Made by a program: the position numbers and the translations under genes. Positions 21,310-38,054 of a stretch of DNA of 47,201 nt are shown piece by piece. Under the pieces are notes generated by a model. That model made no database searches and was not told where the DNA came from. It saw nothing but the letters and a program-made list of their open reading frames with translations. Source of the DNA: Lichenifustis flavocetrariae (lineage in GTDB: Bacteria; Pseudomonadota; Alphaproteobacteria; Rhizobiales; Beijerinckiaceae); the NCBI RefSeq assembly GCF_026130545.1, contig NZ_JAMOIM010000037.1, positions 1-47,201 on the forward strand, in the 5' to 3' direction. Position 1 is the first letter of the stretch; each line of letters begins with the position of its first letter.

Positions 21310-22392
21310 ATGTCTGCAGAGACAAGACATGAGCGGGTGGCGTCGGGACCCGCAGCCATTCTTGCGGTTCATAGCCGTGACATCACCAATGCTGAGGCCG
21401 AGTACATCGTTCGTCAGCGCTACGGGTTCAATTCAACGGCAACACCGCTTCGCAGTGAGCGTGATCAGAACTTTCTGGTCACGAGCACCGATGGGCAACA
21501 ATCGGTACTGAAACTCAGCAATGCGTCTCAGGACGAGCGGCTTTGTTGGTTTCAGACTAGGGCGCTCCTCCACATTGCCTCGGTCGCCCCGAGTCTGCCT
21601 GTTCCACGCGTCTTGCCGACCCTTGATGGCGAGTCGCGGTTCTGGTGGAACGACGGCGAAACTGATCGCCGCACAGGCTTCATGCTTGAGTTTCTCAGGG
21701 GCGTCCCTGTTGCAGAACTGCCGCAAACGCCCGCGCTCGCGGCGCGAACGGGTAAGTTGACGGCCAACCTCGGCCGGGCTCTCCGCGGCTTTTTCGATCC
21801 CGCCGCAGATCATGAACTGCTCTGGGACCTGAAGCAGGCCTCTCACCTGACGGAATACCTGCCATTCATCCAGGACGACCGGAATCGCGATCTCTCACGG
21901 GCGGCGATCGATCGGTTTCGGAGCCATGTGGAGCATCGCCTGCCGGCTTTGCGCGGGCAGGTCATTCACAACGACCTCAACCCCCACAACATCCTCGCCG
22001 ACCCATCGCATCCGGAGACGCCCAGCGGCATCATCGACTTCGGCGACATGGTCTTCGGCGCCCTGATCAACGATGTCGCCGTTGCGGCGGCTTACTTGAT
22101 CACACCGGAGAACGATCCGTTCGCACTTGTCGCTACATTCGTCGCCGCCTATCACGCAATAACCCCGTTCGAGCCGGATGAGCTGGATCTTCTCCCGGAT
22201 CTAATCGCCACGCGCTATGCGATGAGCTGCGCGATCACCGATTGGCGAGCTGCACGCTATCCCGAAAACGCGCCCTACATCCGACGCAACTCGAAGGGCG
22301 CCGTGCTGGGTCTCCGCACCTTGGCGGACCATGGCCGCGAAACGCTCGCGCGCCGTCTGGCAGAAGCGTGTGAACTGCGGGCGGGCAAATGA
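21310..22392 (+). CDS. APH-family small-molecule kinase, hydroxylysine-kinase-like
   Basis: The 360-residue product has a choline/aminoglycoside-kinase fold. The Brenner motif is VIHNDLNPHNIL (catalytic Asp and metal-binding Asn), followed by GIIDFGDMVFG with the DFG-type metal ligand. The N lobe has QQSVLKLSNASQDE with the ATP-binding lysine. Its stop codon overlaps the start of a class III PLP enzyme (ATGA). The same two domains occur, often fused, in the hydroxylysine kinase and phospho-lyase pair (AGPHD1/AGXT2L families) that phosphorylates an amino alcohol and eliminates phosphate. That makes a 5-hydroxylysine- or ethanolamine-type substrate plausible, but it is inferred from family and coupling. 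Confidence 0.7.
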   Translation: MSAETRHERVASGPAAILAVHSRDITNAEAEYIVRQRYGFNSTATPLRSERDQNFLVTSTDGQQSVLKLSNASQDERLCWFQTRALLHIASVAPSLPVPRVLPTLDGESRFWWNDGETDRRTGFMLEFLRGVPVAELPQTPALAARTGKLTANLGRALRGFFDPAADHELLWDLKQASHLTEYLPFIQDDRNRDLSRAAIDRFRSHVEHRLPALRGQVIHNDLNPHNILADPSHPETPSGIIDFGDMVFGALINDVAVAAAYLITPENDPFALVATFVAAYHAITPFEPDELDLLPDLIATRYAMSCAITDWRAARYPENAPYIRRNSKGAVLGLRTLADHGRETLARRLAEACELRAGK

Positions 22393-23711
22393 CGACGAGG
22401 ATGGTCAACGGCTTCGATCCGTCCCAGGCTGGCAAGCTGCCGAACGCTGAAGCGGCTCTCATAGCCCGGCGGCAGCGCCTGCTTGGTCCGGCCTATCGCC
22501 TGTTCTATGAGCACCCGGTCCATCCCGTGCGCGGCGAGGGTGTCTGGCTCTACGACCGCGACGGGACCCGCTACCTCGATGTCTACAACAATGTGCCGGT
22601 CGTCGGGCATTGCCATCCCCGCGTCGTCGAGGCGATCGCACGACAGGCGGCACGGCTCAACACGCACACCCGATATCTGCACGAGTCCATCCTGGACTAT
22701 GCCGAAGCGCTGCTCGCTACTGTCCCCCGCGAGCTTGGCCACGTCATGTTCACCTGCACCGGTAGCGAGGCCAACGATCTCGCTGTGCGTGTGGCCAAAG
22801 CCAGCACCAACGGAACAGCATTCATCGTCACCGCAAATGCCTACCACGGCGTGACCGACGCGGTAGCGGCTTTGTCTCCGCTTCTCGGCCCTTCGAACAC
22901 CTCGACGCTCAACGTATTCACCGTCCCGGCGCCCGACCAGCGGCTGGCCTGCAACTTGGGGGTCGAGACTGCCTTCGCGGCTGGGGTTCAAGCCGCCCTC
23001 GACTCGATAGCTGCACAAGGGCTTAAGCCCGCCGCACTGATGGTCGACACCATTTTTTCCAGCGATGGGGTATTCGCTGATCCGCCTGGATTTCTGCGGA
23101 CAGCGGTCAATCAGGTGCGACAGGCTGGTGGTCTTTTCATCGCCGACGAGGTCCAAGCGGGATTTGGCCGTCTCGGCGATGGCCTTTGGGGATTCAGCCG
23201 CCACGGCCTGGTGCCCGATCTGGTCACGATGGGAAAGCCGATGGGCAATGGCCACCCTGTCGCAGCGATGCTGGCCCGGCCGGTGTTGCTCGAACGGTTC
23301 GGAATGGCCACACGCTATTTCAATACTTTCGGCGGGAACCCCGTGTCCATCGCCGCAGCGCAGGCGGTGCTCGACGTCATCGCCGAAGAAGGTCTCGTCG
23401 AGAACGCCCGGGCTGTCGGGCTGTATCTGCGCGAAGCGCTGATCGCGCGCGCCGAAGCCGACGAACGCCTCGGTAGCGTGCGTGGGAGCGGATTGTTCAT
23501 CGGCGTCGACGTCAATCCCGCGTCAGGGAGCAGCGGGGCGGCCCAGGCTGCACGCATCGTCAACGGACTTCGGGAGAGGCACGTTCTTATCAGCGCTTCC
23601 GGTCCGGCGGGCGATGTGCTGAAGATCCGACCTCCGCTGCCCTTCGGGAGGGACGAGGCTGACTATTTCCTGGCTACCCTCGACGACGTGATGCGCACGC
23701 TTGAGCAATGA
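22389..23711 (+). CDS. Class III PLP enzyme, aminotransferase or phospho-lyase
   Basis: The 440-residue product is a complete class III fold-type I PLP enzyme. It has the N-terminal LYDRDGTRYLDVYNNVPVVG, FTCTGSEANDLAVRVAK for phosphate binding, LFIADEVQAGFGRLG with the cofactor-ring Asp, and the Schiff-base lysine K283 in VTMGKPMGNGHP. The C-terminal LKIRPPLPFGRDEADYF closes it. Relatives include 5-phosphohydroxylysine and phosphoethanolamine phospho-lyases as well as true transaminases. Coupling to the kinase at 21310 favours the lyase reading: phosphorylate, then eliminate phosphate to give an aldehyde and ammonia. A decayed copy of the end of a similar gene lies at 24083-24232. Confidence 0.8.
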   Translation: MTTRMVNGFDPSQAGKLPNAEAALIARRQRLLGPAYRLFYEHPVHPVRGEGVWLYDRDGTRYLDVYNNVPVVGHCHPRVVEAIARQAARLNTHTRYLHESILDYAEALLATVPRELGHVMFTCTGSEANDLAVRVAKASTNGTAFIVTANAYHGVTDAVAALSPLLGPSNTSTLNVFTVPAPDQRLACNLGVETAFAAGVQAALDSIAAQGLKPAALMVDTIFSSDGVFADPPGFLRTAVNQVRQAGGLFIADEVQAGFGRLGDGLWGFSRHGLVPDLVTMGKPMGNGHPVAAMLARPVLLERFGMATRYFNTFGGNPVSIAAAQAVLDVIAEEGLVENARAVGLYLREALIARAEADERLGSVRGSGLFIGVDVNPASGSSGAAQAARIVNGLRERHVLISASGPAGDVLKIRPPLPFGRDEADYFLATLDDVMRTLEQ

Positions 23712-25621: not shown

Positions 25622-25990
25622 TTGGCTGTTGTGGAGAGCGGCCGGCGACGGCGGTGGAGCGAAGCGGAGAAGCTGCGGATCGTTGTGGAAAGCGCGAGCG
25701 GTCCGCAGCTGGTGTCGGCCACGGCGCGGCGACACGGCTTGTCGCCGTCGCAGTTGTTCGGCTGGCGGCGGGCGCTGCTGGTGAAGGACCAAACACCAGC
25801 GCCGACAGCGAACTTCGTTCCGGCCATCGTGGTGCCGGATCACAGCGGTGCCGCGATGGCCACCCCCTCACCGGCACGCTCTCCGCGGATCGAAATCGTG
25901 CTGCGCGGCGGCAGGCGGCTTATCGTCGAGGGGGCGGTCGACACGACCGTGACGCTGAAGCTCGCACGCGGGCTCGAGGCGCTCCGGTGA
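25622..25990 (+). CDS. tnpA: IS66 TnpA-type HTH protein
   Basis: The 122-residue product has the N-terminal HTH of IS66 OrfA proteins (RRRRWSEAEKLRIVVESASG, then ATARRHGLSPSQLFGWRRAL). The C-terminal strand-rich half is IEIVLRGGRRLIVEGAVDTT. It is needed together with TnpB and TnpC for IS66 transposition; its exact role is unclear in the family. Its stop codon overlaps the GTG start of tnpB. Confidence 0.85.
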   Translation: MAVVESGRRRRWSEAEKLRIVVESASGPQLVSATARRHGLSPSQLFGWRRALLVKDQTPAPTANFVPAIVVPDHSGAAMATPSPARSPRIEIVLRGGRRLIVEGAVDTTVTLKLARGLEALR

Positions 25991-26334
25991 TCCCGGTCCC
26001 GGTGGGCGTCAAGGTGTGGCTCGCGACCGGTCACACCGATATGAGGAAGGGGTTCGCCTCGCTCTCGCTGCTGGTGCAGGAGGTCCTCAAACGGGATCCG
26101 AACGGCGGTCATTTGTTCTGCTTTCGCGGTCGCCGCGGTGATCTTTTGAAGATCGTCTGGCATGACGGACAGGCGGCGAACCTGTACGTGCGGCGTCTCG
26201 AGCGGGGCCGCTTTCTCTGGCCGTCGCCGGCCGACGGTGTCGTGGCGATCACGCCGGCGCAGATGGGTTACCTCCTGTCAGGAATCGATTGGTGTAACCC
26301 GGTCGAGGTCTGGCGTCCGACATCGGTCGGATGA
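25987..26334 (+). CDS. tnpB: IS66 TnpB accessory protein
   Basis: The 115-residue product holds the full TnpB signature: GVKVWLATGHTDMRKGFASL, HLFCFRGRRGDLLKIVWHDG and GRFLWPSPADGVVAITPAQM. The start is GTG 25987, overlapping the tnpA stop (GTGA), which gives MIPVPVGVKVWLATG and the usual family length. It appears intact. Confidence 0.9.
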   Translation: MIPVPVGVKVWLATGHTDMRKGFASLSLLVQEVLKRDPNGGHLFCFRGRRGDLLKIVWHDGQAANLYVRRLERGRFLWPSPADGVVAITPAQMGYLLSGIDWCNPVEVWRPTSVG

Positions 26335-26379
26335 CGCCTTTTCGCTTGTCTTCGCTGGAGGATGTGATTCCATCCCTTT

Positions 26380-26602
26380 ATGAGCGCGCCTGCCGCATCG
26401 CAGTCCTTGCCGCCGCTGCCGGCCGATCTGGCGGCGGCGCATGCGATGATCCTGAGCGAACGCGCGGCCAGGATCGAAGCAGAAGCCTCGGCCTCCCATG
26501 CAGCGGTCGAAGCGCTGCAGGCGAAGGCGGCGGCCTCGGCCACCGAGGCGATGATCGCCCACCTGACGCTGCAGATCGCCAAGCTGCGGCGTGAGCTTTA
26601 CG
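26380..26602 (+). pseudogene. tnpC: IS66 TnpC transposase, N-terminal stub
   Basis: Only the first ~74 residues are left: LPPLPADLAAAHAMILSERA, a coiled coil, and MIAHLTLQIAKLRRELY, where the native protein would continue with the FGRSSE-like zinc-finger region. Homology ends at about 26602. The rest of the open frame to 26838 is antisense to a LysR fragment and is not TnpC. Confidence 0.8.
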
Positions 26603-26819
26603 TATGCTGGGCGGCTTCGAGGAATTCCTGCCCCTCAATTGTGGGGCGAGTACCGCCGTTGGTACGTTCGAAGAGGACTGCGCCCAATCGAAATTCGAGA
26701 GCGCGCAAACCCCGGCTGAGAGTTGATTGGCGCACATTCAACGCTTCTGCAGCCTGTCGAAGACTTCGATGTCGGGCGGCAACGATCGCCCATCGCAAGT
26801 CACGAAGCTCGACGCTCAC
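26598..26819 (-). pseudogene. LysR-family regulator, N-terminal stub
   Basis: The 73-codon frame (GTG 26819) is the LysR winged HTH: LRDLRWAIVAARHRSLRQAA, EALNVRQSTLSRGLRALEFR, LGAVLFERTNGG and GQEFLEAAQ. The reading ends with HT and a TAA formed by the IS66 sequence. The effector-binding domain is missing. It was probably once the regulator of the neighbouring cupin/SDR/amine oxidase genes, cut by the IS66 event. Confidence 0.85.
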
Positions 26820-26842
26820 AGCTCAGGTTCCCATCTGAGCAT

Positions 26843-27529
26843 CTAATCGACCTTCGAGCGCTCGCAGACAGTTCCGTGAAGGAGAGGGCCAAACTTCATC
26901 CAGACAGTAGCGCCTTGCTCCCCAACCCGGACTTCGAAATCGATGCCGCCAGGAAGCCGGCCCCAATCCAGCGGCGCGATCGCGTCACCGTTTGCCGTGA
27001 GGCTGCCAGCCACGAGCAAATATTCCAGCCCATTCCCGTTCTCTACGGTTAGACAGGAACCCGCTGGCCACTCCTCCAGCCGGACCTCCTCGTGCTCATC
27101 CTGAAATAGGATAATCGCACTTCCGCCGCCTGAGCGCGGCGTGACGCAGGCGCCCTCGCCGGGGCGTCGCACGATCTGCGTCCGGTCTTCTGCGCGGAAC
27201 TGCCAGAGCCGCACAAAGATTGTGGTGCCACGCTCCGCTGCTGGAGCGTGTGCGGTTCCCGGAGGATTTCGGACGTAAGTACCTGCCGGATAATCACCGT
27301 CGCCGTCCTGGAAGACACCCTCAAGGACCAAGAACTCCTCGCCGCCCGTATGAACATGTTCGGCGAAACTGCTTCCGGGCGCGTAGCGGACGATTGAGGT
27401 GGCGCGGGCCTTCTCCTCGCCTATCCGAAAAAGCATCCGCCGATCTACGCCAGGCGCCGGACTCGGAATCCAATCATTGCGCGAGGCATGGACAAGGACA
27501 GGTTTGGTCAGGTCGTCATTGATTGACAT
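26843..27529 (-). CDS. Double-cupin (ChrR-like) protein
   Basis: The 228-residue product has a first cupin barrel with the metal-binding set in FAEHVHTGGEEFLVLEGVFQ and PPGTAHAP. This resembles the ChrR cupin of anti-sigma factors, but the zinc-binding anti-sigma N-terminal domain is absent. A second, weaker barrel follows (EVRLEEWPAGSCLTVENGNG, LEYLLVAGSL) without the full His set. I chose ATG 27529, two bases after the SDR stop codon; a TTG two codons upstream is also open. It is the last gene of a six-member minus-strand set with two SDRs, OsmC and an amine oxidase. A dioxygenase, isomerase or peroxide-sensing role is possible. Confidence 0.75.
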   Translation of the reverse strand: MSINDDLTKPVLVHASRNDWIPSPAPGVDRRMLFRIGEEKARATSIVRYAPGSSFAEHVHTGGEEFLVLEGVFQDGDGDYPAGTYVRNPPGTAHAPAAERGTTIFVRLWQFRAEDRTQIVRRPGEGACVTPRSGGGSAIILFQDEHEEVRLEEWPAGSCLTVENGNGLEYLLVAGSLTANGDAIAPLDWGRLPGGIDFEVRVGEQGATVWMKFGPLLHGTVCERSKVD

Positions 27530-27531
27530 CG

Positions 27532-28275
27532 TCAAATCTCAGCCAATCCGCCATCGACATTGATCTCAGCGCCGAGCAGGTAGGTCGCGTCGTCGCCAGC
27601 GAGGAAGGCGACGGCAGCCGCAACGTCCTCGGGTCTTCCCATACGGCCTGCCGGCACCTTCAAGCCGACGCTATCGGCATAGGCGCGGAACTCTGCTTCC
27701 GTCTGGCCGGGCGTTCGATGCATCGGCGTCTCGATTGGGCCGGGGCTAACGGCGTTCACGCGGATACGCCGGTTGGTAAGCTCCGCCGCGAGCACGCGGG
27801 TGAAGGAACGCACCGCGGCCTTCGAAGCGGAGAGCGCCGCGCGGCCGGGTGTGCCGATCTGGCCCAACCACGAGGTGTTGAGAATGATCGCGCCGCCGTC
27901 GTTGAAGATCGGCAGCACGGACTGCACGGTGAAGAACACCCCCTTCACGTTCACGTCCATCAGTCTGTCGAAGGCTTCATCGCGCGTCGTCGCGATTGGC
28001 GTGCCGTAGGCGACACCCGCGTTGGCGAACAGAATGTCGAGCCTGCCGAACGCTTCCGCGACGCGAGCTGCCATCGCTTCGATTTCGTGCAGGCGGCGAA
28101 CGTCGGCCTGGATCGCTATCGTGTTGCCGCCCACTTTGGCCCGCGCCGATTCCAGCTTGGCGCCGTCCGTGCCAGTTATGGCGACGCGCGCACCCTCTGC
28201 GTGCAGCCTTATTGCAGTCGCCAGCCCAATACCGCTGCTTCCGCCCGTGATGAGAGCCGTCTTTCCCGTCAGCAT
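27532..28275 (-). CDS. SDR-family oxidoreductase lacking the catalytic tyrosine
   Basis: The 247-residue product is a classical short-chain dehydrogenase: TGGSSGIG cofactor motif near residue 10, NAG in ILFANAGVAYG, catalytic Ser S135 in ILNTSWLGQIG, and K152 in SASKAAVRSF. At the position of the catalytic Tyr (four before K152) there is Leu (L148; codon CTC at 27832-27834), so YxxxK reads LSASK. Standard reduction or oxidation chemistry needs that Tyr. Some SDRs related to this one may share the LSASK form, so it may be a subfamily trait with another role. Its start overlaps the end of the amine oxidase gene by 7 bases, so the two are coupled. Confidence 0.85.
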   Translation of the reverse strand: MLTGKTALITGGSSGIGLATAIRLHAEGARVAITGTDGAKLESARAKVGGNTIAIQADVRRLHEIEAMAARVAEAFGRLDILFANAGVAYGTPIATTRDEAFDRLMDVNVKGVFFTVQSVLPIFNDGGAIILNTSWLGQIGTPGRAALSASKAAVRSFTRVLAAELTNRRIRVNAVSPGPIETPMHRTPGQTEAEFRAYADSVGLKVPAGRMGRPEDVAAAVAFLAGDDATYLLGAEINVDGGLAEI

Positions 28276-29390
28276 GCGATGGTCTCCGCGCTTGTCGCCT
28301 GCAGGCGCTGAATCACCTCTCTAGCGGCGCGGCTTCCCGCCTCAACGGCACCAGCGAGATAGCCCGGCGCCGCCAAACTTGTCTCACTGCTGGCGACTGT
28401 GAGGAGATCGGCCCAAGGAGCGCGGAGCCAGGGATCTCGCGAGGGGGCGAGATGGCCACTCGAAACACGATCTGCGGCCGTGGCTGTCAGCGCGTCAGCG
28501 CTCCAATCCTTGAATAAAGTTGCGGTCGGATGGGCCGCCCTTGGGCCGAAGAGCCGAACAAGCTGAGTTAGTGCAGATGCGATCAGAACCTTCTCACCCA
28601 TCGCCTCGCGCCGTGCGGCATCCGGCCCAACGAAGCCGAACAACGCGGCGCGGCCTGACGCCGTCGTCGCATCATGGATTTCGACGAGCGGCCCGACGAA
28701 ACTCTGGGCGTCGCCAGACAAGCCCTCGTCCCGCCAAAAAGGACGCTCGTAGAGCGCGAAGAACTTGGCATGCGGTGCCATCCAAGTTGCGGTGTCCCGC
28801 CACTTGGAGAGAATCTTAGGATCAAGGAGAGGTTCGAACGAGATTGTATCGGCGGATAGCCGCAGCGGCACGGCAAGGATGAGTTGCGCCGCCTCAACCG
28901 TTTGCACGGCACAGTCTTGTCCCGCGGCGATCATGACCACGCGCTTGCCGGCAATCGACATGTGCGTGACGTTAGTGGCGAGAGAGAGCCTGTCGATTGG
29001 AAGGCCCGCGGCCAACGCCGTCACCAGCGTGCCCATGCCACCCGCAAGCCGCATTGACGAAGACTCTTGCCGCATCGCGCGGAAGCGCCGAGGGTCTTCG
29101 AGCGCATATCGATCGACGATCACATCCCCTTCTTCGTGCTGAGGAAAAACTGCGAGGCCCAGCGAATGCACGAGTTTCTCCATTTCTGGCTGCATATCTG
29201 GCCAGAACCAAGAGGGCCCCAAATCGAATCCGTCGGCGGAGGGATAGCCGCGCGCGTCCACGCTCAAGATGCGACCGCCGAACCGATCGCGCGCTTCAAA
29301 GAGCTGGAAATCGACACCCGCCTCGTGCAGCAGGCGTGCCGCGACGAGGCCGGCAAGACCGCCTCCCACAACGACAACTTCGGTGTGCAT
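28269..29390 (-). CDS. Flavin monoamine oxidase-family protein
   Basis: The 373-residue product opens with an FAD motif (MHTEVVVVGGGLAGLVAARL, then VDFQLFEARDRFGGRILSV, the GG-doublet that follows it). It has the C-terminal amine-oxidase ending (APGYLAGAVEAGSRAAREVI). Relatives oxidise amines or amino acids to imines with H2O2 release. I chose ATG 29390. The frame goes on upstream to 29474, where a second FAD-like start (MQTSVAIIGG) with a good GAGGGG ribosome site stands. That could be the relic of another flavoprotein or the true translation start. The gene is 7 bases overlapped with the downstream SDR. Confidence 0.8.
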   Translation of the reverse strand: MHTEVVVVGGGLAGLVAARLLHEAGVDFQLFEARDRFGGRILSVDARGYPSADGFDLGPSWFWPDMQPEMEKLVHSLGLAVFPQHEEGDVIVDRYALEDPRRFRAMRQESSSMRLAGGMGTLVTALAAGLPIDRLSLATNVTHMSIAGKRVVMIAAGQDCAVQTVEAAQLILAVPLRLSADTISFEPLLDPKILSKWRDTATWMAPHAKFFALYERPFWRDEGLSGDAQSFVGPLVEIHDATTASGRAALFGFVGPDAARREAMGEKVLIASALTQLVRLFGPRAAHPTATLFKDWSADALTATAADRVSSGHLAPSRDPWLRAPWADLLTVASSETSLAAPGYLAGAVEAGSRAAREVIQRLQATSAETIAC

Positions 29391-29525
29391 TGAGGTGTAC
29401 CTCGAAATGAAATCAGTGGGACGGGATGAAGGGGCCGCGCACTCACCCCCGATGATGGCGACGGAGGTTTGCATGGTCCCCTCTCTGCAAGTTGGAACGG
29501 GGCCGGCGTGCCGGCCCCGAAAAAG

Positions 29526-29660
29526 TTACGCCTTCGGCAGGGCTGCGATCGCGTCAAGCACCCGGGCAGAATAGGTCACCGCCGCGCCGGCATTCAGCGC
29601 CACGGCTGCGCCCAGCGCTTCGGCGATCTCTTCTTTGGGCGTGCCATGGCCGTTAGCCAT
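29526..29660 (-). pseudogene. Carboxymuconolactone decarboxylase (AhpD-like) family, C-terminal stub
   Basis: The frame reads MANGHGTPKEEIAEALGAAV, then ALNAGAAVTYSARVLDAIAA and stop. This is the last helix pair of CMD/AhpD-type proteins, in which TxEEIxEALxxAV and a final AxxxLDAxxxL are typical. The CxxC redox motif belongs to the missing N-terminal half. Upstream reading is cut near the stop codon of the OsmC gene. The stub sits between OsmC and the amine oxidase, where an AhpD/OsmC pairing would make sense for peroxide defence. Confidence 0.7.
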
Positions 29661-29668
29661 ACGCCTCG

Positions 29669-30217
29669 CTACGATTCTACGACCAGTTTCGCCTCGAGCC
29701 GTATGGGCATGGCGATGTTGAAGCGATTTGGTGAATGCCGAATAACCGATTGATGTATGGCATCAAATTGCTCGAGGGTTCCATCCCCGCTGATGCGCAC
29801 TATGTAGTAGAGCGCATCGTATCCAGGCTTTACCCGGGGATCGATATTTAGGAAGCCACGCAGATCCAATTCGCCGGTCGTTTCGATCTCGAGTTTCGTT
29901 AGAGTCACGTTGGCGGCAGCAGCGGCGGTCACGTACCCGACCAGCATGCAAGCATTCAGAGCTGCCATCAACAATTCCTGAGGATTCGGCGCGGAGTTCT
30001 TTCCCAACAGTTGCTCAGGTTCATCGGCCGCGATGACAAAGTCACGCTCGTAGGCTGTTCCCCCAAGATGCAGGGACTTTACACGGGACTCCGATCGCGT
30101 TTGGCCAGCCCAAGACGTCAGAACGTTGAAACTCACCAGACCTTTCGCCGGATCGGCTGCAATGGCGGAAATGGTCTCCCGCAATGCCGGCACGTCGATT
30201 CCATTCACGCTTGACAT
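29669..30217 (-). CDS. OsmC-family protein
   Basis: The 182-residue product has the OsmC/Ohr core APNPQELLMAALNACMLVGY with the reactive cysteine C90. In peroxidase members a second cysteine comes about 60 residues later. Here the place reads RHSPNRFN, with Ser, so the disulphide cycle of Ohr/OsmC peroxidases is not possible. The product is closer to OsmC-like proteins of unknown activity. GAGGAAGAG precedes ATG 30217, and the gene follows the SDR at 30234 by 16 bases, so they form one operon facing the TetR gene. Confidence 0.8.
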   Translation of the reverse strand: MSSVNGIDVPALRETISAIAADPAKGLVSFNVLTSWAGQTRSESRVKSLHLGGTAYERDFVIAADEPEQLLGKNSAPNPQELLMAALNACMLVGYVTAAAAANVTLTKLEIETTGELDLRGFLNIDPRVKPGYDALYYIVRISGDGTLEQFDAIHQSVIRHSPNRFNIAMPIRLEAKLVVES

Positions 30218-30233
30218 AATTTCTCTTCCTCTC

Positions 30234-31004
30234 TTATTGGCGGCCGGCGGTCACGCCGCCATCGACGGAAAGCACTGTGCCCGTGATCCAGGACGCCTGA
30301 TCGGAAGCGAGAAAAAGCATCGCCTCCGCGACGTCACGCGGCTGGCCGTTGCGACCGATCGGATGGAAGGCGTTGAAGGTGGGCAGCGTCTCCTTGACCT
30401 GCTCCTCAGTCATGAAGGTGTTGTAGACCGGCGTCTCGACCACGGCGGGGGCCACGGCGTTGATGCGAATTTTGTATTGAGCTAGCTCAATCGCGAGATT
30501 GCGCACCATCGCGTGGACGCCCGCATTGGCGGCTGAATAGGCGGCGGAAGGGGTCGCGCCGATCGCTTGGATCGCCCACATCGAGCCGGTCTGGACGATC
30601 GCACCACCCTTGGCCTTCATCGCCTTGGCGGCTGCTTGGGCGGTAAAGAATTTGCCCTTCAGGATCGTATCCAAATACCAATCGTAGTCAGCCTCGGTCA
30701 GTTCGAGGAACGACTTCGGATTGAACACGCCGGCATTGTTGATCAGCACATCCAGGCCGCCGAACTTCGAGACCGCCGCATCGACAAGTGCGGCGCCTGT
30801 AGCAGGGACGGCGATGTCGCCAGCCGAAATGATGACCTTCTCACCGGTCGGATCAATTTCGCGGGCGACCGCCTCCAGCTTGGCCGCGTCACGCCCGTTA
30901 ATCGCCACTCTTGCGCCCTCGGCAATGAACCGAGCGGCGACTTCCTTGCCGATCCCTGATCCACCACCCGTTATTGCAACTACCTTACCTTCGAACCGCG
31001 CCAT
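30234..31004 (-). CDS. SDR-family oxidoreductase lacking the catalytic lysine
   Basis: The 256-residue product has the SDR cofactor motif TGGGSGIG near residue 11, DVLINNAGVFNPKSF, Ser S141 in VQTGSMWAIQAIG and the Tyr Y156. The position of the catalytic Lys (four after Y156) holds Asn (N160; codon AAT at 30525-30527), so YxxxK reads YSAAN. The C-terminal DQASWITGTVLSVDGG is the normal family ending. The loss should weaken NAD(P)-ribose binding and proton relay. ATG 31004 opens the Rossmann motif; the upstream open frame runs through the operator and is not coding. It is the first gene of the TetR-facing operon. Confidence 0.9.
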   Translation of the reverse strand: MARFEGKVVAITGGGSGIGKEVAARFIAEGARVAINGRDAAKLEAVAREIDPTGEKVIISAGDIAVPATGAALVDAAVSKFGGLDVLINNAGVFNPKSFLELTEADYDWYLDTILKGKFFTAQAAAKAMKAKGGAIVQTGSMWAIQAIGATPSAAYSAANAGVHAMVRNLAIELAQYKIRINAVAPAVVETPVYNTFMTEEQVKETLPTFNAFHPIGRNGQPRDVAEAMLFLASDQASWITGTVLSVDGGVTAGRQ

Positions 31005-31013
31005 CGGTATCTC

Positions 31014-31033
31014 CTTATCTAACGTTAGATAAG
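31014..31033. promoter_or_regulatory. Perfect 20-bp palindrome, TetR-type operator
   Basis: CTTATCTAACGTTAGATAAG is a perfect inverted repeat placed 10 bases upstream of the SDR start at 31004 and 77 bases before the TetR gene. Length, symmetry and position are those of TetR-family operators. Binding by the product of 31110 is inferred. Confidence 0.85.
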
Positions 31034-31066: not shown

Positions 31067-31086
31067 CTTATCTAACGACAGGTAAG
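31067..31086. promoter_or_regulatory. Second, imperfect copy of the TetR-type operator
   Basis: CTTATCTAACGACAGGTAAG keeps the left arm of the first site exactly and has a looser right arm. It lies 53 bases centre to centre from the first site, about five helical turns, and 24 bases before the TetR start codon. The pair fits control of both divergent promoters. Confidence 0.75.
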
Positions 31087-31109: not shown

Positions 31110-31613
31110 ATGTCAGCCACCGTGGAGGCGATCCTAGATGTGACCGAACGGCGAATTCGCGAGGCGGGCTATCACGGCTTCAGCTTCCGGACAGTCGCCG
31201 CCGAGGTAGGAGTGAAGGGCGCCAGCGTGCACTATCACTTCTCATCCAAAGACGCCCTCGCTGCGGCGGTCACCCGCCGATACAATGAGCGGATCGCGAA
31301 AGCGGTCGACGAGAAGGTCAAAGCTGGCACCGATGTGGTGGCAGCTTGGATCGATGTATTCCGAGGAGCGCTGAGTGATGGCACGCGCATGTGTTTGTGC
31401 GGTGCGCTTGGCATAACCTTGAGCGATCTCTCGCCGGAGGTCGTCGCCGAGGTAAAACGCTTCTTCGATCAAGCGATCAGCAGTTTGATTGCTGGAGGCG
31501 TGAAGCGCCATCGCGCGATTGAAGTGTTGGCAACTCTAGAAGGCGCGATCCTGATGGCTAGCGTCTGCGGTGATCTTTCTACCTTTGATGAAGCAACAGC
31601 CGCGCTTCGTTGA
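31110..31613 (+). CDS. TetR-family transcriptional regulator
   Basis: The 167-residue product has the TetR HTH (RRIREAGYHGFSFRTVAAEV, then GVKGASVHYHFSSKDALAAA) and a ligand domain (MCLCGALGITLSDL, LATLEGAILMASV, FDEATAAL). GGAGAG stands 6 bases before ATG 31110. It is divergent from the SDR/OsmC/amine oxidase operon across two operator-like palindromes and is the obvious repressor of both sides. A fragment of a paralogue is found at 32793-33014. The ligand is unknown. Confidence 0.9.
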   Translation: MSATVEAILDVTERRIREAGYHGFSFRTVAAEVGVKGASVHYHFSSKDALAAAVTRRYNERIAKAVDEKVKAGTDVVAAWIDVFRGALSDGTRMCLCGALGITLSDLSPEVVAEVKRFFDQAISSLIAGGVKRHRAIEVLATLEGAILMASVCGDLSTFDEATAALR

Positions 31614-31770: not shown

Positions 31771-32721
31771 ATGCGTGATGTCGCGTTTGTTGTTCATCCG
31801 GATTATTCGGCGATGTCTTGGGCCGTCGTTATGGCCTTCCAGGTCGCCAATTCGGTGGCCGCAACGGAAGCGCCTCCCTACGAGCTTCATTTTGTCTCGG
31901 AGACTGGGGGGAAAATCAAAACCGCATGCGGCATGATGCTAGAGAGTGAACCGTTCACGGAGATGCCGTTCCACACGCTTGTCGTCGGCGGCGCGACAAA
32001 CCCGAAGGCGTCGACGCCTAGCTTGATCGCATATGTGAGAGATGCGCCCAAACGGCATCGCCGGATTGCTGCGATCAGCACGGGTGCCTTCGTACTAGCT
32101 GAGGCCGGCCTCTTGGATGGACGCGACGCCACCACCCATTGGACGCACGCGCCGCTGCTCCAGGCACAGTATCCGGCGGTGAAGTTGGATAAGGACCGCA
32201 TTTTCATGAATGACGGACCGATCTGGACGACCGCAGGCGGAGCCGCAGGTCTCGATCTCAGCCTTGCGTTGATCGAAAATGATCTCGGCGCCGATTTTGC
32301 GAAGGTGGTCGCGCGCGAGCTCGTTATCTATCACCGGCGCGCGGGCGGCCAATCGCAAATCTCCAAGCTCCTCGATCTCACGCCGAACTCCGATCGGATT
32401 CAGGCGGCGCTCACCTACGCTCGCGACAACATGTACAAGCCGTTGACCGTCGCCGATTTGGCCAACGCCGCGCGTCTCAGCCCGCGGCAGTTCAGCCGCG
32501 CGTTTCGTGCCGAGACCGGTCAGTCACCGGCAAAGTCGATCGAAATTCTTCGGGTCGAGACCGCTCGCAATCTTATGGAGCAAAGCCGTCATTCGATTGA
32601 TGAGGTGGCTCGTCAGACAGGCTTTAGCGACCGCGACCATATGCGCCGGGCATTCGTGCGTGCCTTCGGTCAGTCGCCGCAGGCTCTCCGGCGCGAGGCC
32701 CGGCTTTCGGCCAATGCCTAG
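31771..32721 (+). CDS. GlxA-type regulator (DJ-1/PfpI plus AraC domains), elbow cysteine replaced
   Basis: The 316-residue product has an N-terminal DJ-1/PfpI domain (1-185) and a C-terminal pair of AraC HTH units (LTVADLANAARLSPRQFSRA, then HSIDEVARQTGFSDRDHMRR). In the sensor domain the nucleophile elbow reads ISTGAFVLAEAGLL, with Ser where relatives and the paralogue at 33200 have Cys. The sensor part therefore probably binds a ligand without chemistry. No target gene is adjacent in the same direction; the gene lies between the TetR gene and the broken tRNA. Confidence 0.9.
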   Translation: MRDVAFVVHPDYSAMSWAVVMAFQVANSVAATEAPPYELHFVSETGGKIKTACGMMLESEPFTEMPFHTLVVGGATNPKASTPSLIAYVRDAPKRHRRIAAISTGAFVLAEAGLLDGRDATTHWTHAPLLQAQYPAVKLDKDRIFMNDGPIWTTAGGAAGLDLSLALIENDLGADFAKVVARELVIYHRRAGGQSQISKLLDLTPNSDRIQAALTYARDNMYKPLTVADLANAARLSPRQFSRAFRAETGQSPAKSIEILRVETARNLMEQSRHSIDEVARQTGFSDRDHMRRAFVRAFGQSPQALRREARLSANA

Positions 32722-32734
32722 GCGAATGAGAGAC

Positions 32735-32801
32735 GCGTCCGTAGCTCGGCTGGATAGAGCGCCACCCTCCGAAGGTCGAGGCATTGGTCGAAAACGGACG
32801 G
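32735..32801 (+). pseudogene. Broken tRNA-Arg (anticodon CCG)
   Basis: The stretch starts with GCGTCCG (acceptor 5' strand), then TA, a normal D arm (GCTC...GAGC) and an anticodon arm whose loop CTCCGAA shows anticodon CCG at 32769-32771. The anticodon stem has one mismatch. A degenerate T arm follows (TGGTCGAAAA, several bases short), then CGGACGG, which pairs with six of seven acceptor bases. The T stem cannot form, so the gene is dead. It passes directly into a headless TetR gene, which suggests a recombination or integration event at this tRNA. Confidence 0.6.
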
Positions 32802-33014
32802 ATGTGTCTATGTGGCGCCCTTGGGGCCAGCGCGCGAAATCTACCCGAAGAAGTGCTCTCGGAGGTGCGGCGCTTCTTCAACCTCGACCTAAGGAGAATG
32901 ACAGGGGCTGGGATAGCCCGCTCCGACGCGTTTAAGCTGTTCGCTACGCTCGAAGGCGCGATCATGATGGCCAACGTTCCCGGCAGCCACGAGGTGTTCG
33001 ATGAAGCAACAGCC
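32793..33014 (+). pseudogene. TetR-family regulator, C-terminal fragment
   Basis: The frame reads NGRMCLCGALGASARNLPEE, VLSEVRRFFNLDLRRMTGAG, FKLFATLEGAIMMANVPGSH and FDEATA. It is a clear relative of residues ~93-165 of the TetR protein at 31110 (RMCLCGALG, LATLEGAILMASV, FDEATAALR). The DNA-binding half is gone; homology begins at the 3' end of the broken tRNA. Beyond FDEATA the frame continues to 33173 with unrelated sequence. Confidence 0.8.
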
Positions 33015-33199
33015 TGCCAAACAATCGTCGGCTGTTATCGGCTGCCAAAGGCCAAGAAAACGATTGGCACGGCATATCCCGGGTTTGAGAAGACGTCGAT
33101 GCCCTCACAAATGGATATCGCAAAGATGTTGAACGCGTGCACTTCGAAGAATCGTTTTGTCAAATACCCTTAGCCGGAAACCAGCAGATTTCGAGCGAC

Positions 33200-34180
33200 C
33201 TAATCTGCGCTCTCGTGTTCGTCAGCCTCGTTATGGATGTCGATCGATTCCAGGCGCGCATTCCGTCGAAGCACCTGCGGCGGCTGTCCGAAGGCGCGCA
33301 GGAACGCGCGACGCATGTGATCGCGATCGCTGAAGCCGGTCTGACGAGCCACCTCATCGATCGAATGACGGCTCTGCTCCATGAGGTTGCGCGCGCCCTC
33401 GACCCGAAGGTTCTCGATTGCCTTAGCCGGTGACTGGCCCGTCTCGGCGTGGAAGGCCCGACTGAATTGCCGGGGGCTGAGGTTCGCGGCGTCGGCTAGG
33501 TCTGGCACGCTGAGGGGCTTGTGCAGATTGTCCCGCGCATAAGCGAGCGCCGCTTGGATGCGATCCGACTTAGGCGTGAGCTCGAGCAGGGTCGAGAACT
33601 GCGTCTGCCCGCCGCCGCGGCGATGGTACACCACCAGCTTGCGTGCCACGGCCTTGGCGATATCGGGACCAAGGTCGTTCTCGATCAACGCCAGACCTAG
33701 GTCTACGCCGGCGGTCATGCCGGCCGAGGTCCAGATCGGTCCGTCGTTGATGAAGATGCGGTCCTCTTCCATCTGCGCCTTCGGATAGGTCCGCTGAAGG
33801 TCGCGCGCGTGCATCCAGTGCGTCGTGGCGCGCCGGCCGTCTAGTAGGCCCGCCTCGGCCAAGACGAAGGCGCCGGTGCAGACCGCTGCGATGCGTCGGT
33901 GGCGCTTGGGGGCGTCTCGCATGAATTCGATCAGCCCAGGCGTGGAGGGCGCGATCACGGTCGCCCCGCCCACCACCAGGGTATCGAAGGGCTTCTCAGT
34001 GAACTTCTCGGTCTCCAGCATCAGGCCGGCCGAAGTTTTGATCGGGCCGCCTTTTTCCGACACGTAGTGCAAGTCGTAGGGCATCGGGTCGACCATCGAA
34101 TTGGCGACTTCGAAGCCTGCGACGATAGCCAGAGCCATCAGCGAGTAGCCGGGATATATCAGAAATGCGATGTCGCGCAT
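33200..34180 (-). CDS. GlxA-type regulator (DJ-1/PfpI plus AraC domains)
   Basis: The 326-residue product is a paralogue of the one at 31771, with near-identical HTH units (NLSPRQFSRAFHAETGQSPA, HSIDEVARQTGFSDRDHMRR). Here the sensor domain keeps the cysteine elbow (AVCTGAFVLAEAGLLDG). It is divergent from the SDR at 34295, and the 114-base gap holds paired TGTC/GACA half-sites. The likely role is activation of the SDR/DJ-1 genes and perhaps the oxidoreductase cluster behind them. Confidence 0.9.
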   Translation of the reverse strand: MRDIAFLIYPGYSLMALAIVAGFEVANSMVDPMPYDLHYVSEKGGPIKTSAGLMLETEKFTEKPFDTLVVGGATVIAPSTPGLIEFMRDAPKRHRRIAAVCTGAFVLAEAGLLDGRRATTHWMHARDLQRTYPKAQMEEDRIFINDGPIWTSAGMTAGVDLGLALIENDLGPDIAKAVARKLVVYHRRGGGQTQFSTLLELTPKSDRIQAALAYARDNLHKPLSVPDLADAANLSPRQFSRAFHAETGQSPAKAIENLRVEGARNLMEQSRHSIDEVARQTGFSDRDHMRRAFLRAFGQPPQVLRRNARLESIDIHNEADEHESAD

Positions 34181-36220: not shown

Positions 36221-37576
36221 TTGGCGCGTGCAATCACATCATCCTTCGACGAGAAGCGGATAGCCGGGCGCCGTCTATGCAGGCGCCTGGTCGTCGGGGC
36301 GGTCGCCCTGGGACTTCTCGGTCTTGCGGGTTTTGCCGCCTTTGCGTGGCAGCCCGCGCTTCCTGAGATCGCGACTCCGGCGCCCTCGAGTTTCGCCCTG
36401 AATGTCGTTGCGCGGGGCGCGGTTTTGGCGGCGGCCGGATACTGCTCTAGCTGCCACACCGTGCCAGGTGGCCAACCCTTCGGCGGCGGCTACGCCATGA
36501 AGTCGGCTTTCGGGACGATCTACTCCACCAATATCTCGCCGGACCGGGAGACGGGTATCGGCGCCTGGTCGAAGGACGCATTCCGGCGGGCGATGCACGA
36601 GGGCGTGGCTCGCGACGGCTCACACCTCTTTCCGGCCTTCCCCTATGAACATTTCACCAAGATAAGCGACGATGACGTCGACGCGATCTACGCCTTCATC
36701 ATGTCGCAGAAGCCGGTCCACGCGTCGGCGCAGCCCAACGCGCTGATCCCGCCGCTCGGCATCCGCGCGCTGCAGGCCGGCTGGAAGCTGCTGTTCTTCC
36801 GGCCCGGGCGCTTCAAGCCCTCGGCCGACCACGACGCCCAGTGGAACAGAGGAGCATATCTGGCTGAGGCGCTCGACCACTGCTCGGCCTGCCACTCGCC
36901 GCGCAATCTGTTGGGCGCCGAGCGTGGAGGCGCCGCACGCTACAGCGGCGCGTACGTCGACGGCTGGTTTGCGCCGCCACTCACCGCCGCCAACCCCTCG
37001 CCCTCGCCTTGGACGTCGGACGAGTTGCACGCCTACCTGTTCCAGGGGATCGGCCAATTTCATGGCACGCCGGCCGGCCCTATGTCACCGGCGGCCCACA
37101 GCCTCTTCGTCCTGCCGCAGGCAGACCAGAATGCACTGGTGCGCTACATTGCCTCTATAGGGGGCGGCGACGCGCGCGCCGGGAGCGCCGCCGCGGCCAA
37201 GGGCTTGGCGCTGCAAATCAACGCCACCAGCGCGGGTCGCCAGACCGATCCTGACGCCCGGTTCTACGTCGCGGCTTGTGCGTCCTGCCACTACAACGGC
37301 ACGGGCGTGATCAACCCGGCTCGGCCGGACCTAGCCCTCAACAGCGCGGCCCATCTCTCCAGCCCAGATAATCTGATCCGCGTGATCCTCTTTGGGATCG
37401 ACACGCCGGAGGGCGCGCCGGGGCTGGTCATGCCGGCCTTCGGCAAGGGGTTCAGCGACGCCGACGTGGCCCGGCTCGCCGCCTACCTGCGGCGCACCCG
37501 CACCGATCAGCCGCCCTGGCCCAACCTTCAGAAGACCGTCGCCGACATCCGCGCGCAGGGGAAAGGGGTGGAATGA
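36221..37576 (+). CDS. Triheme cytochrome c subunit of a periplasmic dehydrogenase
   Basis: The 451-residue product has one N-terminal membrane anchor or signal ([20 protein letters not shown]) and three heme sites: C75-x-x-C78-H (YCSSCHT), C221-x-x-C-H (HCSACHS) and C353-x-x-C-H (ACASCHY). Methionine ligands are likely in [16 protein letters not shown] and [11 protein letters not shown]. This is the cytochrome subunit type of membrane-bound alcohol and aldehyde dehydrogenases, which passes electrons to ubiquinone or terminal oxidases. The start is TTG 36221, the only reasonable one ahead of the anchor. The stop is one base from the next ATG. Confidence 0.9.
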
Positions 37577-37577
37577 C

Positions 37578-38054
37578 ATGTCCACAAGCTTCTTAGTCAA
37601 CGGCCGTCCGGTCAGGACCGATGAGGAGGCCGACACGCCCCTGCTCTGGGTCCTACGTGATGAGATTGGCCTCAAGGGGACAAAATTCGGCTGCGGCATT
37701 GGCATGTGCGGCGCCTGCACGGTCCATGTCGGCGGCCGGCCAACACGGTCCTGCATTACCCCGATCAGTGCGATGGAGGGTGCCGAGGTCACCACGATCG
37801 AGGGGCTGGATCCTGCGGGCCAGCACCCGGTGCAGCAAGCATGGCGCGAGCTCCAGGTGCCGCAGTGCGGCTACTGCCAATCCGGACAAATCATGCAGGC
37901 GGCTGTCCTGCTGGAGGACTTCCCCAACCCGACCGACGCGGACATCGACGCGGTGATGACGGGCAACCTCTGCCGTTGCATGACCTATTCGCGCATCCGC
38001 GACGCAATCAAGGCCGCGGCCCGACTCACTGTCCAGGCGACGACCCATGACTAG
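37578..38054 (+). CDS. [2Fe-2S] subunit of a molybdenum aldehyde oxidoreductase (IorA/AldG-like)
   Basis: The 158-residue product is the standard small subunit of xanthine-oxidase-family enzymes. A plant-type cluster is ligated by C39, C44, C47 and C59 ([15 protein letters not shown]). A second helical-domain cluster is ligated by C97, C100, C132 and C134 ([13 protein letters not shown] and GNLCRCMTY). It carries electrons from the molybdenum centre to the cytochrome. It has no signal peptide and must be exported together with its Tat-bearing partner. It overlaps the next gene by 8 bases. Confidence 0.95.

What the first reader, a model, noticed from the sequence alone, without database searches (positions are those of the whole stretch)
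26843..31033. TetR-facing operon whose two SDR enzymes have lost complementary catalytic residues
The SDR at 27532-28275 keeps Ser135 and Lys152 but has Leu148 in place of the catalytic Tyr. The SDR at 30234-31004 keeps Ser141 and Tyr156 but has Asn160 in place of the catalytic Lys. Both codons are unambiguous in the DNA. Both lie in one minus-strand set with an OsmC-type protein lacking its second Cys, a flavin amine oxidase and a double cupin. Several members with altered active sites in one regulated set suggest non-classical chemistry, binding roles, or a mixed SDR oligomer. The set as a whole matches no pathway I know.
Basis: partly seen in the sequence, partly recalled or inferred. Interest (0 to 1): 0.7.

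Follow-up and report, generated by a model that had tools for sequence, protein, structure and literature searches.

The report
Two conserved odd-active-site reductase relatives
A switchable bacterial gene cluster carries two relatives of common NAD(P)-dependent enzymes that each lack key catalytic residues, and the same losses recur in the same kind of cluster in distant bacteria, so they look kept by selection rather than accidental.

Summary
Both losses are old and kept. Leu holds in 40 of 40 rows of the SDR1 clade through five Leu codons; a sister clade has Val or Thr. Asn holds in 31 of 35 SDR2 relatives (3 Lys, 1 Met). The set recurs in Alpha-, Beta- and Gammaproteobacteria, often on plasmids. 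TetR and SDR2 share twin palindromic operators in 20 of 21 loci; the operator occurs once in this genome. An obligate mixed oligomer is unlikely: 24 of 35 SDR1-Leu genomes gave no SDR2, and 12 of 13 genomes found by SDR2 gave no SDR1-Leu. Each SDR instead tends to travel with the same flavin amine oxidase and cupin; this window merges two modules. Best reading (function inferred): a local TetR-controlled reactive-electrophile detoxification operon with two non-classical NAD(P)H-binding SDRs, probably altered chemistry rather than dead scaffolds. OsmC's missing second Cys is ordinary. I found no assay of these proteins, so function stays open.

The parts
26843..27535 (-). Cupin_7 (ChrR-cupin-like) protein, last gene of the set; overlaps the SDR1 stop. 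Cupin metal-ligand pattern (recalled) His60, His62, Glu66, His96
   Evidence: these residues are invariant in the 36 rows aligned (some rows may be the same gene from overlapping loci)
27532..28275 (-). SDR1: classical SDR with Leu148 in place of the catalytic Tyr; keeps Asn109, Ser135, Lys152 and the TGxxxGxG cofactor motif
   Evidence: AlphaFold model mean pLDDT 92.3, nearest solved fold RasADH, TMq 0.94-0.97 in the three top matches
27832..27834 (-). codon of Leu148 (CTC)
   Evidence: relatives use CTG, CTC, CTT, TTG and CTA
28269..29474 (-). Flavin amine oxidase family protein (likely true start 29390); overlaps SDR1
   Evidence: a match in 32 of 44 Leu-SDR1 loci and 16 of 20 SDR2 loci, four of the former only partial
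29669..30217 (-). OsmC-family protein lacking the C-terminal Cys; rare in the set
   Evidence: in 1 of 44 Leu-SDR1 loci (the window) and 2 of 20 SDR2 loci, plus a partial relative beside the TetR of Acetobacter orleanensis at a contig end (L115)
30234..31004 (-). SDR2: classical SDR fold with Asn160 in place of the catalytic Lys and Ile114 in place of the tetrad Asn; keeps Ser141 and Tyr156
   Evidence: AlphaFold model mean pLDDT 87.0, nearest solved fold RasADH with NADPH
30525..30527 (-). codon of Asn160 (AAT)
30663..30665 (-). codon of Ile114 (ATC), the place of the tetrad Asn
31015..31032 (.). perfect palindromic operator-like site TTATCTAACGTTAGATAA just upstream of SDR2
   Evidence: 0 mismatches; the core occurs at one place in the 7.5 Mb genome at up to 1 mismatch
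31068..31085 (.). second, weaker operator-like copy upstream of TetR
   Evidence: 2 mismatches; paired sites in 20 of 21 related intergenic regions
31110..31613 (+). TetR-family regulator, divergent; conserved CxC motif (Cys95, Cys97)
   Evidence: Cys97 in 28 of 28 and Cys95 in 26 of 28 rows (one gene, L055/L115, is in twice)

Best explanation
The segment is a small, mobile, TetR-controlled operon formed by merging two related modules: LysR-SDR1-cupin-amine oxidase, and TetR/LysR-SDR2-CMD-amine oxidase-aldehyde reductase-cupin. It most likely removes a reactive electrophile (a quinone, quinone methide, enone or aldehyde type). The TetR is proposed to sense it through its CxC thiols and release twin operators that occur only here. 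SDR1 is proposed to be a cofactor-binding reductase that works without the catalytic Tyr: hydride goes to an activated C=C or quinoid carbon, with Lys152 (directly or through water) or the substrate's own hydroxyl taking over the proton role. SDR2 keeps Ser-Tyr but has lost the Asn-Lys relay, so it is proposed to be a slow, re-tuned reductase or binding subunit that serves the same amine oxidase/cupin core. Shown: residue losses, their conservation, gene association, conserved operator-like sites, predicted classical fold, purifying selection. Inferred: operon transcription, substrate class, thiol sensing, all chemistry.
For: Leu clade: 40 of 40 rows lack Tyr (38 NSLK, 2 NALK; SH-aLRT 98), inside a 49-row Tyr-less clade with Val/Thr relatives (SH-aLRT 95). 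Five Leu codons over 45 motif matches (44 without L101, which lies outside the clade) and dN/dS of 0.04-0.20 in 8 of 9 SDR1 pairs show selection for the protein and for Leu. Residues of the cofactor site and core (G11/G15/G17, N85-A86-G87, N109, S135, K152, P178-G179) are shared by 44 Leu rows and 52 Tyr rows, while T134, W136, L137, R187, F196 and Y199 are at 93% or more in the Leu rows and rare in the Tyr rows: the pattern expected of a re-specialised enzyme. SDR2: Asn in 31 of 35, Ile114 in all 35, dN/dS 0.04-0.12 in 6 of 6 pairs. Amine oxidase match in 32 of 44 and 16 of 20 loci. Operators. TetR CxC. Detoxification context: Lys-bearing SDR relatives sit beside OsmC, OYE, CMD, Trx and DsbA genes (L149) or OYE and OsmC (L137), the content of published allicin-resistance clones (PMC7119367, passages); OsmC-like and CMD genes were among those strongly induced by HOCl in Burkholderia cenocepacia biofilms (PMC7464077, passage); the alcohol dehydrogenase partner is nearest aldehyde reductase Ahr but below its cut-off. 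Precedents for SDR reduction without Tyr: Glu in place of Tyr goes with ene reduction in isopiperitenone reductase (PMC4988501, passages); Lys-driven reduction in Tyr-less eugenol synthase (PMC1991597, passages).
Against: I found no activity, substrate or expression datum for any member. In the precedents the Tyr is replaced by Glu, or the protein is of a different SDR subgroup; neither has Leu in a classical SDR. 12 of 44 Leu-SDR1 loci lack the amine oxidase and 15 lack the cupin, and in loci found by SDR2 itself only 5 of 8 and 4 of 8 have them, so the core is not universal. Position 160 of SDR2 is Lys in 3 members and Met in 1, so Asn is preferred rather than required. OsmC, the main link to oxidative defence inside the window, is rare in the set. 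In the allicin study no transposon insertion was found in osmC, sdr or tetR, so their role there is untested. One SDR1 pair (L059/L060) gave dN/dS 0.54, on very few changes, and several pairs are near saturation in dS. SDR1's Ser is Ala in two clade members (L026, L027).
Confidence: 0.4

Rival explanations
1. Mixed SDR oligomer: SDR1 (Asn, Ser, Lys kept) and SDR2 (Ser, Tyr kept) assemble so that one supports the other, as an inactive subunit accompanies BbsD in BbsCD.
For: Same operon in the window and fused order in L030 and L031. SDR2 is enriched in Leu-SDR1 genomes: 11 of 35 against 5 of 397 in the phylum sample, Fisher p 6e-10 (related species and shared plasmids not corrected for). Some plasmids carry both, near each other (L025, Sinorhizobium; L022, Sphingobium) or far apart (Microvirga VF16, L027 and L146). 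SDR2's best sequence match in the PDB is BbsD.
Against: 24 of 35 Leu-SDR1 genomes gave no SDR2-clade gene, and 12 of 13 SDR2 genomes found by SDR2 itself gave no Leu-SDR1; 0 of 8 plasmid loci fetched by SDR2 have one within 5 kb. Classical SDR active sites lie within one subunit (recalled), so completing a tetrad in trans is unlikely. RasADH scores about as well as BbsD.
Confidence: 0.15
2. Both are pseudoenzymes: cofactor- or ligand-binding sensors or scaffolds for the amine oxidase and cupin, with no redox turnover.
For: Each lacks a residue normally needed for catalysis. Fold and cofactor motif are kept. Position 160 of SDR2 toggles between Asn, Lys and Met. An inactive SDR subunit is published (BbsCD: title seen in a reference list).
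Against: Residues around the Ser and in the C-terminal loop are nearly fixed specifically in the Leu rows, and Lys is kept in all and Ser in all but two clade members, which a pure scaffold would not need. Replacement of the Tyr by Leu, Val or Thr in one clade fits a changed pocket at least as well.
Confidence: 0.3
3. Private or decaying mutations in this genome only.
For: The window has IS66-type genes next to the cupin and a TetR remnant at about 32.78 kb.
Against: The same substitutions in dozens of loci, several Leu and Asn codons, intact frames and low dN/dS.
Confidence: 0.02
4. An amine or polyamine catabolic operon in which the amine oxidase makes an aldehyde and the SDRs act as ordinary aldehyde or alcohol handling enzymes with tolerated active-site changes.
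For: The amine oxidase is the commonest partner; its nearest solved relatives are monoamine and putrescine oxidases. An MFS transporter gene recurs (20 of 44 Leu-SDR1 loci).
Against: Other recurring partners are cupin, CMD and LysR genes, not a recognised amine pathway; aldehyde dehydrogenases were not searched for. The protein is about 370 aa, shorter than the solved oxidases listed (447-734 aa), and similarity is weak.
Confidence: 0.13

Closest known systems
RasADH, classical SDR alcohol dehydrogenase of Ralstonia (PDB 4bms, 4i5d, 6ihi)
   Same: Nearest solved fold of SDR1 (TMq 0.94-0.97 in the three top matches, 47-48% identity) and of the SDR2 model; same cofactor motif, Ser and Lys as SDR1.
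   Different: Has a normal YSAAK; SDR1 has Leu for Tyr, SDR2 has Asn for Lys and Ile for the tetrad Asn.
BbsCD, (alpha-hydroxybenzyl)succinyl-CoA dehydrogenase (PDB 7pcs)
   Same: Two SDRs in one gene set with 'inactive pseudoenzyme subunits' (title seen in a reference list). BbsD is SDR2's best sequence hit in the PDB.
   Different: Here both SDRs are altered, and they mostly occur apart in other genomes.
Isopiperitenone reductase of Mentha
   Same: An SDR with the catalytic Tyr replaced that reduces C=C instead of C=O (PMC4988501, passages).
   Different: Replacement is Glu, not Leu; plant enzyme.
Eugenol synthase
   Same: SDR-superfamily reductase lacking the catalytic Tyr, driven by the Lys; the substrate hydroxyl sits roughly where the Tyr hydroxyl would be (PMC1991597, passages).
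   Different: Member of the PIP group, not a classical 250-residue SDR.
Allicin-resistance gene sets of Pseudomonas PfAR-1
   Same: osmC, sdr, tetR in one conserved group with dsbA and trx, beside ahpD and oye (PMC7119367, passages); a relative of this window's OsmC (56%), a Lys-bearing SDR2 relative, CMD, Trx, OYE, DsbA and a TetR lie together in L149.
   Different: The L149 SDR carries YSMAK. The window operon lacks Trx, OYE, DsbA and CMD homologues and has amine oxidase, cupin and SDR1. PfAR-1's own SDR was not compared.
ChrR-type cupin (PDB 3o14, Anti-ECFsigma factor ChrR)
   Same: The cupin aligns over residues 3-218.
   Different: No ECF sigma gene is annotated in the plasmid stretches with annotation that I saw; it was not searched for. 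Below the NCBIfam ChrR cut-off (36 vs 124.5 bits).

Membership tests
Classical SDR (SDR1) | TGxxxGxG cofactor motif and NAG motif | tested here: met
   T10 G11 G12 G15 I16 G17 and N85 A86 G87 conserved
Classical SDR (SDR1) | Asn-Ser-Tyr-Lys tetrad | tested here: not met
   N109 S135 L148 K152; Tyr absent
Classical SDR (SDR2) | TGxxxGxG cofactor motif | tested here: met
   T12 G13 G14 G17 I18 G19 invariant in alignment A3 of 14 rows
Classical SDR (SDR2) | Asn-Ser-Tyr-Lys tetrad | tested here: not met
   I114 S141 Y156 N160; Asn and Lys absent
Glucose 1-dehydrogenase (name given in public records) | NCBIfam PRK07231 subfamily score over cut-off | tested here: inconclusive
   SDR2 229 vs cut-off 215 (met); SDR1 214.5 vs 215 (just missed). 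The name implies an activity that the residues do not support
BbsCD-type heterotetramer | obligate pairing of two SDR subunits | tested here: not met
   both in 11 of 35 and 1 of 13 genomes; complex formation itself not testable
Allicin/thiosulfinate resistance set | ahpD, dsbA, trx, oye present with osmC, sdr, tetR | tested here: not met
   Window operon has TetR, SDR and OsmC; no homologue of the L149 Trx, OYE or DsbA, nor of the CMD queries, in window 20-38 kb
MAO-type flavin amine oxidase | Amino_oxidase domain over cut-off | tested here: met
   154.3 bits vs 19.8
MAO-type flavin amine oxidase | oxidation of an amine | not testable with these tools
   no assay
Thiol-sensing TetR repressor | conserved Cys | tested here: met
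   Cys97 28 of 28, Cys95 26 of 28 rows, one gene in twice
Thiol-sensing TetR repressor | Cys reactivity that releases DNA | not testable with these tools
   no assay

The most novel reading that the evidence does not exclude
SDR1-Leu and SDR2-Asn are two independently evolved bacterial SDR classes with new active-site chemistry (Tyr-less, Lys-driven reduction of a quinoid or enone carbon; and Ser-Tyr chemistry without the Asn-Lys relay), recruited as alternative and here joint partners of one amine oxidase-cupin detoxification core and spread on plasmids.
Probability: 0.3. Interest if true: 0.68.

Novelty: new variant of a known kind. Interest (0 to 1): 0.5.

Why it matters
Tyr and Lys are the textbook signature by which SDRs are recognised. 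Two subfamilies that dropped complementary parts of the tetrad, kept that state across bacterial classes, and sit in one switchable, often plasmid-borne gene set give a tractable test of what an SDR can do without its Tyr or its Asn-Lys relay. Public records name members 'glucose 1-dehydrogenase', which the residues do not support.

Tried and rejected
Private mutation or decay: rejected by conservation. Obligate mixed oligomer: weakened by co-occurrence. OsmC as a core member or as a further 'altered' enzyme: not supported; the C-terminal Cys is missing in all 5 rows aligned and OsmC is rare in other loci, though on recount a partial relative (53%) was found beside the TetR of Acetobacter orleanensis, beyond the end of locus L055, in L115.

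A first gene-neighbourhood clustering by longest ORFs was confounded by long antisense ORFs in GC-rich DNA and was dropped in favour of tblastn with named queries. A paper search on the whole gene set gave 0 papers with at least 5 of 6 terms. The listings (20 of 44 papers shown; 7 of 7; 7 of 7; 8 of 631; 12 of 17; 10 of 77; 20 of 73; 1 of 1) showed no title on these two SDR motifs. That is no proof of absence: only titles and abstract starts were seen, and the library holds only open-licence papers.

Rows dropped before counts: three tblastn hits with stops inside (L103, L012, one of L015), hits under 600 bases (so the split L067), and listed duplicate loci of the same DNA; SDR1 rows of 225 residues or fewer (so the shortened L063) were left out of the tree. 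Only the best 80 of 513 relatives were kept by the scan, so the Leu counts describe the closest relatives. The 44 Leu-SDR1 loci are loci, not genomes (L036 and L040, and L023 and L024, share an organism), and four amine oxidase matches among them are partial (L029, L033, L057, L063). The SDR1 tree is a 'quick' tree with warnings about long branches; in the first SDR2 tree the SDR2 clade had SH-aLRT 80, in the careful one without SDR1 rows 100/100 against the Lys-bearing outgroup. The catalytic columns were not removed from these trees. In one 45-row alignment the tetrad Asn of the Lys-bearing relatives falls one column off; the wider alignment puts it at the tetrad column. One search computed Fisher with 12 of 35; one of these (G371, L121) is of the Lys-bearing outgroup type, and repeats it with 11. 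In one search the automatic pick for the window's first operator was a wrong tie (spacing 72); one search gives the site (spacing 53). The shuffle control kept base content only. In one search one TetR gene is in twice (L055, L115).

Full report
WHAT IS THERE. The window is contig C111 of a 7.5 Mb genome in 180 contigs. On the minus strand, in the order of transcription: SDR2 (31004-30234), an OsmC-family protein (30217-29669), a flavin amine oxidase (29474-28269, probably starting at 29390), SDR1 (28275-27532) and a Cupin_7 protein (27535-26843); a TetR-family gene (31110-31613) faces away. The amine oxidase, SDR1 and cupin frames overlap by a few bases. All frames are intact. The tetrad of classical SDRs is Asn-Ser-Tyr-Lys, in which Tyr is the key catalytic residue, Lys lowers its pKa, Ser stabilises the substrate and Asn maintains the frame of the proton relay (PMC5797133, passages read). 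SDR1 therefore lacks Tyr only; SDR2 lacks both Asn and Lys.

ARE THE LOSSES CONSERVED? A scan of the genome collection (84,980 species genomes) with SDR1, using patterns outside the active site, returned 80 loci, the best of 513 relatives. In tblastn alignments every close SDR1 relative (about 54% identity or more) has Leu at the Tyr position with Lys kept, while most below about 53% have Tyr. In a tree of 112 rows, 40 of 40 rows of the clade that holds the window lack Tyr (38 N-S-L-K, 2 N-A-L-K; SH-aLRT 98), and this clade lies in a 49-row clade without any Tyr, whose other members have Leu (2), Val (6) or Thr (1) (SH-aLRT 95). Two further Leu rows lie elsewhere (L099, L101), so Tyr was probably replaced more than once. 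Leu is written with five codons over 45 motif matches (CTG 15, CTC 13, CTT 9, TTG 6, CTA 2; L101, outside the clade, is one of the TTG): the amino acid is kept while the codon drifts. For SDR2, 35 clade members have Asn in 31, Lys in 3 (L113, L154, L157) and Met in 1 (a Priestia plasmid, L145). In the motif scan (34 genes: 31 Asn, 2 Lys, 1 Met; L154 was not matched) the Asn codons are AAT 21 and AAC 10. All 35 have Ile at the tetrad Asn (32 rows by script; L155-L157 read). The three Lys members are separate on the tree and nested among Asn members, which fits reversion by one base. The nearest outside group in hand is Lys-bearing (13 rows, mostly YSMAK). Pairwise dN/dS is 0.04-0.20 in 8 of 9 SDR1 pairs (the ninth, 0.54, rests on very few changes) and 0.04-0.12 in 6 of 6 SDR2 pairs; dS is near saturation in several. 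These look like working proteins under constraint.

IS IT A REAL SET? With named queries two recurring modules appear. Module A is LysR < SDR1 > cupin > (CMD, DUF2938) > amine oxidase > MFS, seen in Rhizobium, Sphingobium, Novosphingobium, Acetobacter and others. Module B is TetR or LysR < SDR2 > small protein > CMD > amine oxidase > zinc alcohol dehydrogenase > cupin, with variations in order and content, seen on Sinorhizobium, Paraburkholderia, Acinetobacter and Microvirga plasmids. The window, Altericroceibacterium (L030) and Aureimonas (L031) carry a merged form, TetR < SDR2 ... amine oxidase > SDR1 > cupin; a Bradyrhizobium (L029) has TetR, SDR1 and cupin with only an amine oxidase fragment and no SDR2. 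Over loci with Leu-SDR1, an amine oxidase match is found in 32 of 44 (four only partial) and a cupin in 29 of 44; over loci with SDR2, 16 of 20 and 14 of 20 (5 of 8 and 4 of 8 in the loci found by SDR2 itself). The amine oxidase is otherwise rare: 3 of 289 genomes of the class at E 1e-30, the window's own included. OsmC is rare in the set: 1 of 44 and 2 of 20 loci, plus a partial relative beside the TetR of Acetobacter orleanensis at a contig end (L115).

DO THE TWO SDRs NEED EACH OTHER? Of 35 genomes with Leu-SDR1 given to, 11 gave an SDR2-clade gene (10 with Asn, 1 with Lys). In a sample of the phylum it is 5 of 397 without the window's genome (Fisher p 6e-10, not corrected for relatedness). 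So they associate more than chance. But 24 of 35 gave none at E 1e-60, and of 13 genomes found by SDR2 alone only 1 (G1031) gave a Leu-SDR1; four other matches in two genomes have Tyr. Draft genomes and MAGs may hide some. An obligate mixed oligomer is therefore not the general rule; what each SDR tends to share is the amine oxidase and cupin.

REGULATION. In 20 of 21 TetR-SDR2 intergenic regions two sites within 4 mismatches of CTATCTA-N4-TAGATAG occur, mostly 53-66 bases apart; base-shuffled controls average 0.03 of 21 regions. The window has TTATCTAACGTTAGATAA at 31015-31032 and a weaker copy at 31068-31085. With up to one mismatch the core TATCTA-N4-TAGATA occurs at one place in the whole genome, this one. 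The TetR is thus probably a local regulator. Its relatives keep a CxC motif (Cys97 28 of 28, Cys95 26 of 28 rows, one gene in twice), which suggests, but does not show, thiol sensing.

STRUCTURE. Models of SDR1 (mean pLDDT 92.3) and SDR2 (87.0, with low confidence at 145-151 and 249-256) are classical SDR folds; the nearest solved fold for both is Ralstonia RasADH. In SDR1 the cofactor motif, NAG motif, N109, S135, K152 and P178-G179 are shared by 44 Leu rows and 52 Tyr rows, while T134, W136, L137, R187, F196 and Y199 are at 93% or more in the Leu rows and rare in the Tyr rows. That pattern fits a changed pocket better than a dead scaffold; this last step is inference.

MECHANISM. Two published cases show that an SDR can reduce without the Tyr: isopiperitenone reductase, where Glu stands for Tyr and C=C is reduced, with both acidity and space suggested as causes (PMC4988501, passages), and eugenol synthase, which lacks the Tyr, depends on the Lys and places the substrate hydroxyl roughly where the Tyr hydroxyl would be (PMC1991597, passages). 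SDR1 keeps the Lys and replaces Tyr by a smaller hydrophobic residue. I propose reduction of an activated C=C or quinoid carbon. The context suggests electrophile defence: Lys-bearing relatives of SDR2 sit with OsmC, CMD, OYE, Trx and DsbA (L149) or with OYE and OsmC (L137), the content of allicin-resistance clones (PMC7119367, passages). In that study insertions in ahpD, dsbA, trx, oye and kefC had effects, but none were recovered in osmC, sdr or tetR, so the SDR itself is untested. The substrate is unknown.

VERDICT. It is a new variant of a known kind (pseudo- or non-classical SDRs exist), of moderate interest because both losses are stable, complementary and in one testable operon.

Noticed in passing
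window 32781-33173: Remnant of a second TetR gene (51% identical to a plasmid relative of the set), between two DJ-1/PfpI-AraC (GlxA-like) regulators (31771-32721 and 33200-34180): looks like a local duplication.
   Followed up: partly
window 25622-26838: IS66-type transposase genes (HTH_Tnp_1, TnpB_IS66 and an unassigned frame) directly beside the cupin stop; several relatives of the set are on plasmids, some beside IS6 elements (L140, L144).
   Followed up: partly
L064, L065, L066, L069, L078, L100 and L084: Sister clade of SDR1 with Val (6) or Thr (1) for the catalytic Tyr in Acetobacteraceae and Hyphomicrobium; six of the seven have an AraC relative of the window's 33200-34180 regulator nearby (46-50% identity), L078 only a weaker one. 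A further Tyr-less SDR type with its own context.
   Followed up: partly
window 36221-40374: Cytochrome c, [2Fe-2S] and molybdopterin subunits downstream of SDR3 and a DJ-1 protein; an OsmC relative in a Rhizobium plasmid (L147) also neighbours such genes and an alkene reductase.
   Followed up: no
L113, L154, L157: SDR2 relatives with Lys back at position 160 but Ile still at the tetrad Asn: natural comparisons for the Asn form.
   Followed up: partly
NC_021910.1, NC_021909.1, NZ_CP031992.1 (L023, L024, L144): Public annotation names Leu-type SDR1 or Asn-type SDR2 'glucose 1-dehydrogenase', although catalytic residues are missing.
   Followed up: partly
L115 (Acetobacter orleanensis, same contig as L055): Partial OsmC relative (53% to the window's OsmC) just past the TetR at a contig end: the one other case of OsmC beside a TetR-SDR2 pair.
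   Followed up: partly
window 21310-22392: APH-family phosphotransferase next to a class III aminotransferase (22389-23711); likely amine metabolism rather than drug resistance (guess).
   Followed up: no
L145 (Priestia aryabhattai plasmid p-LAD5): SDR2 relative with Met at the Lys position, in a Bacillota plasmid stretch rich in thiol-redox genes (OsmC, DsbA, thioredoxin, YtxJ, sulfurtransferase).
   Followed up: no
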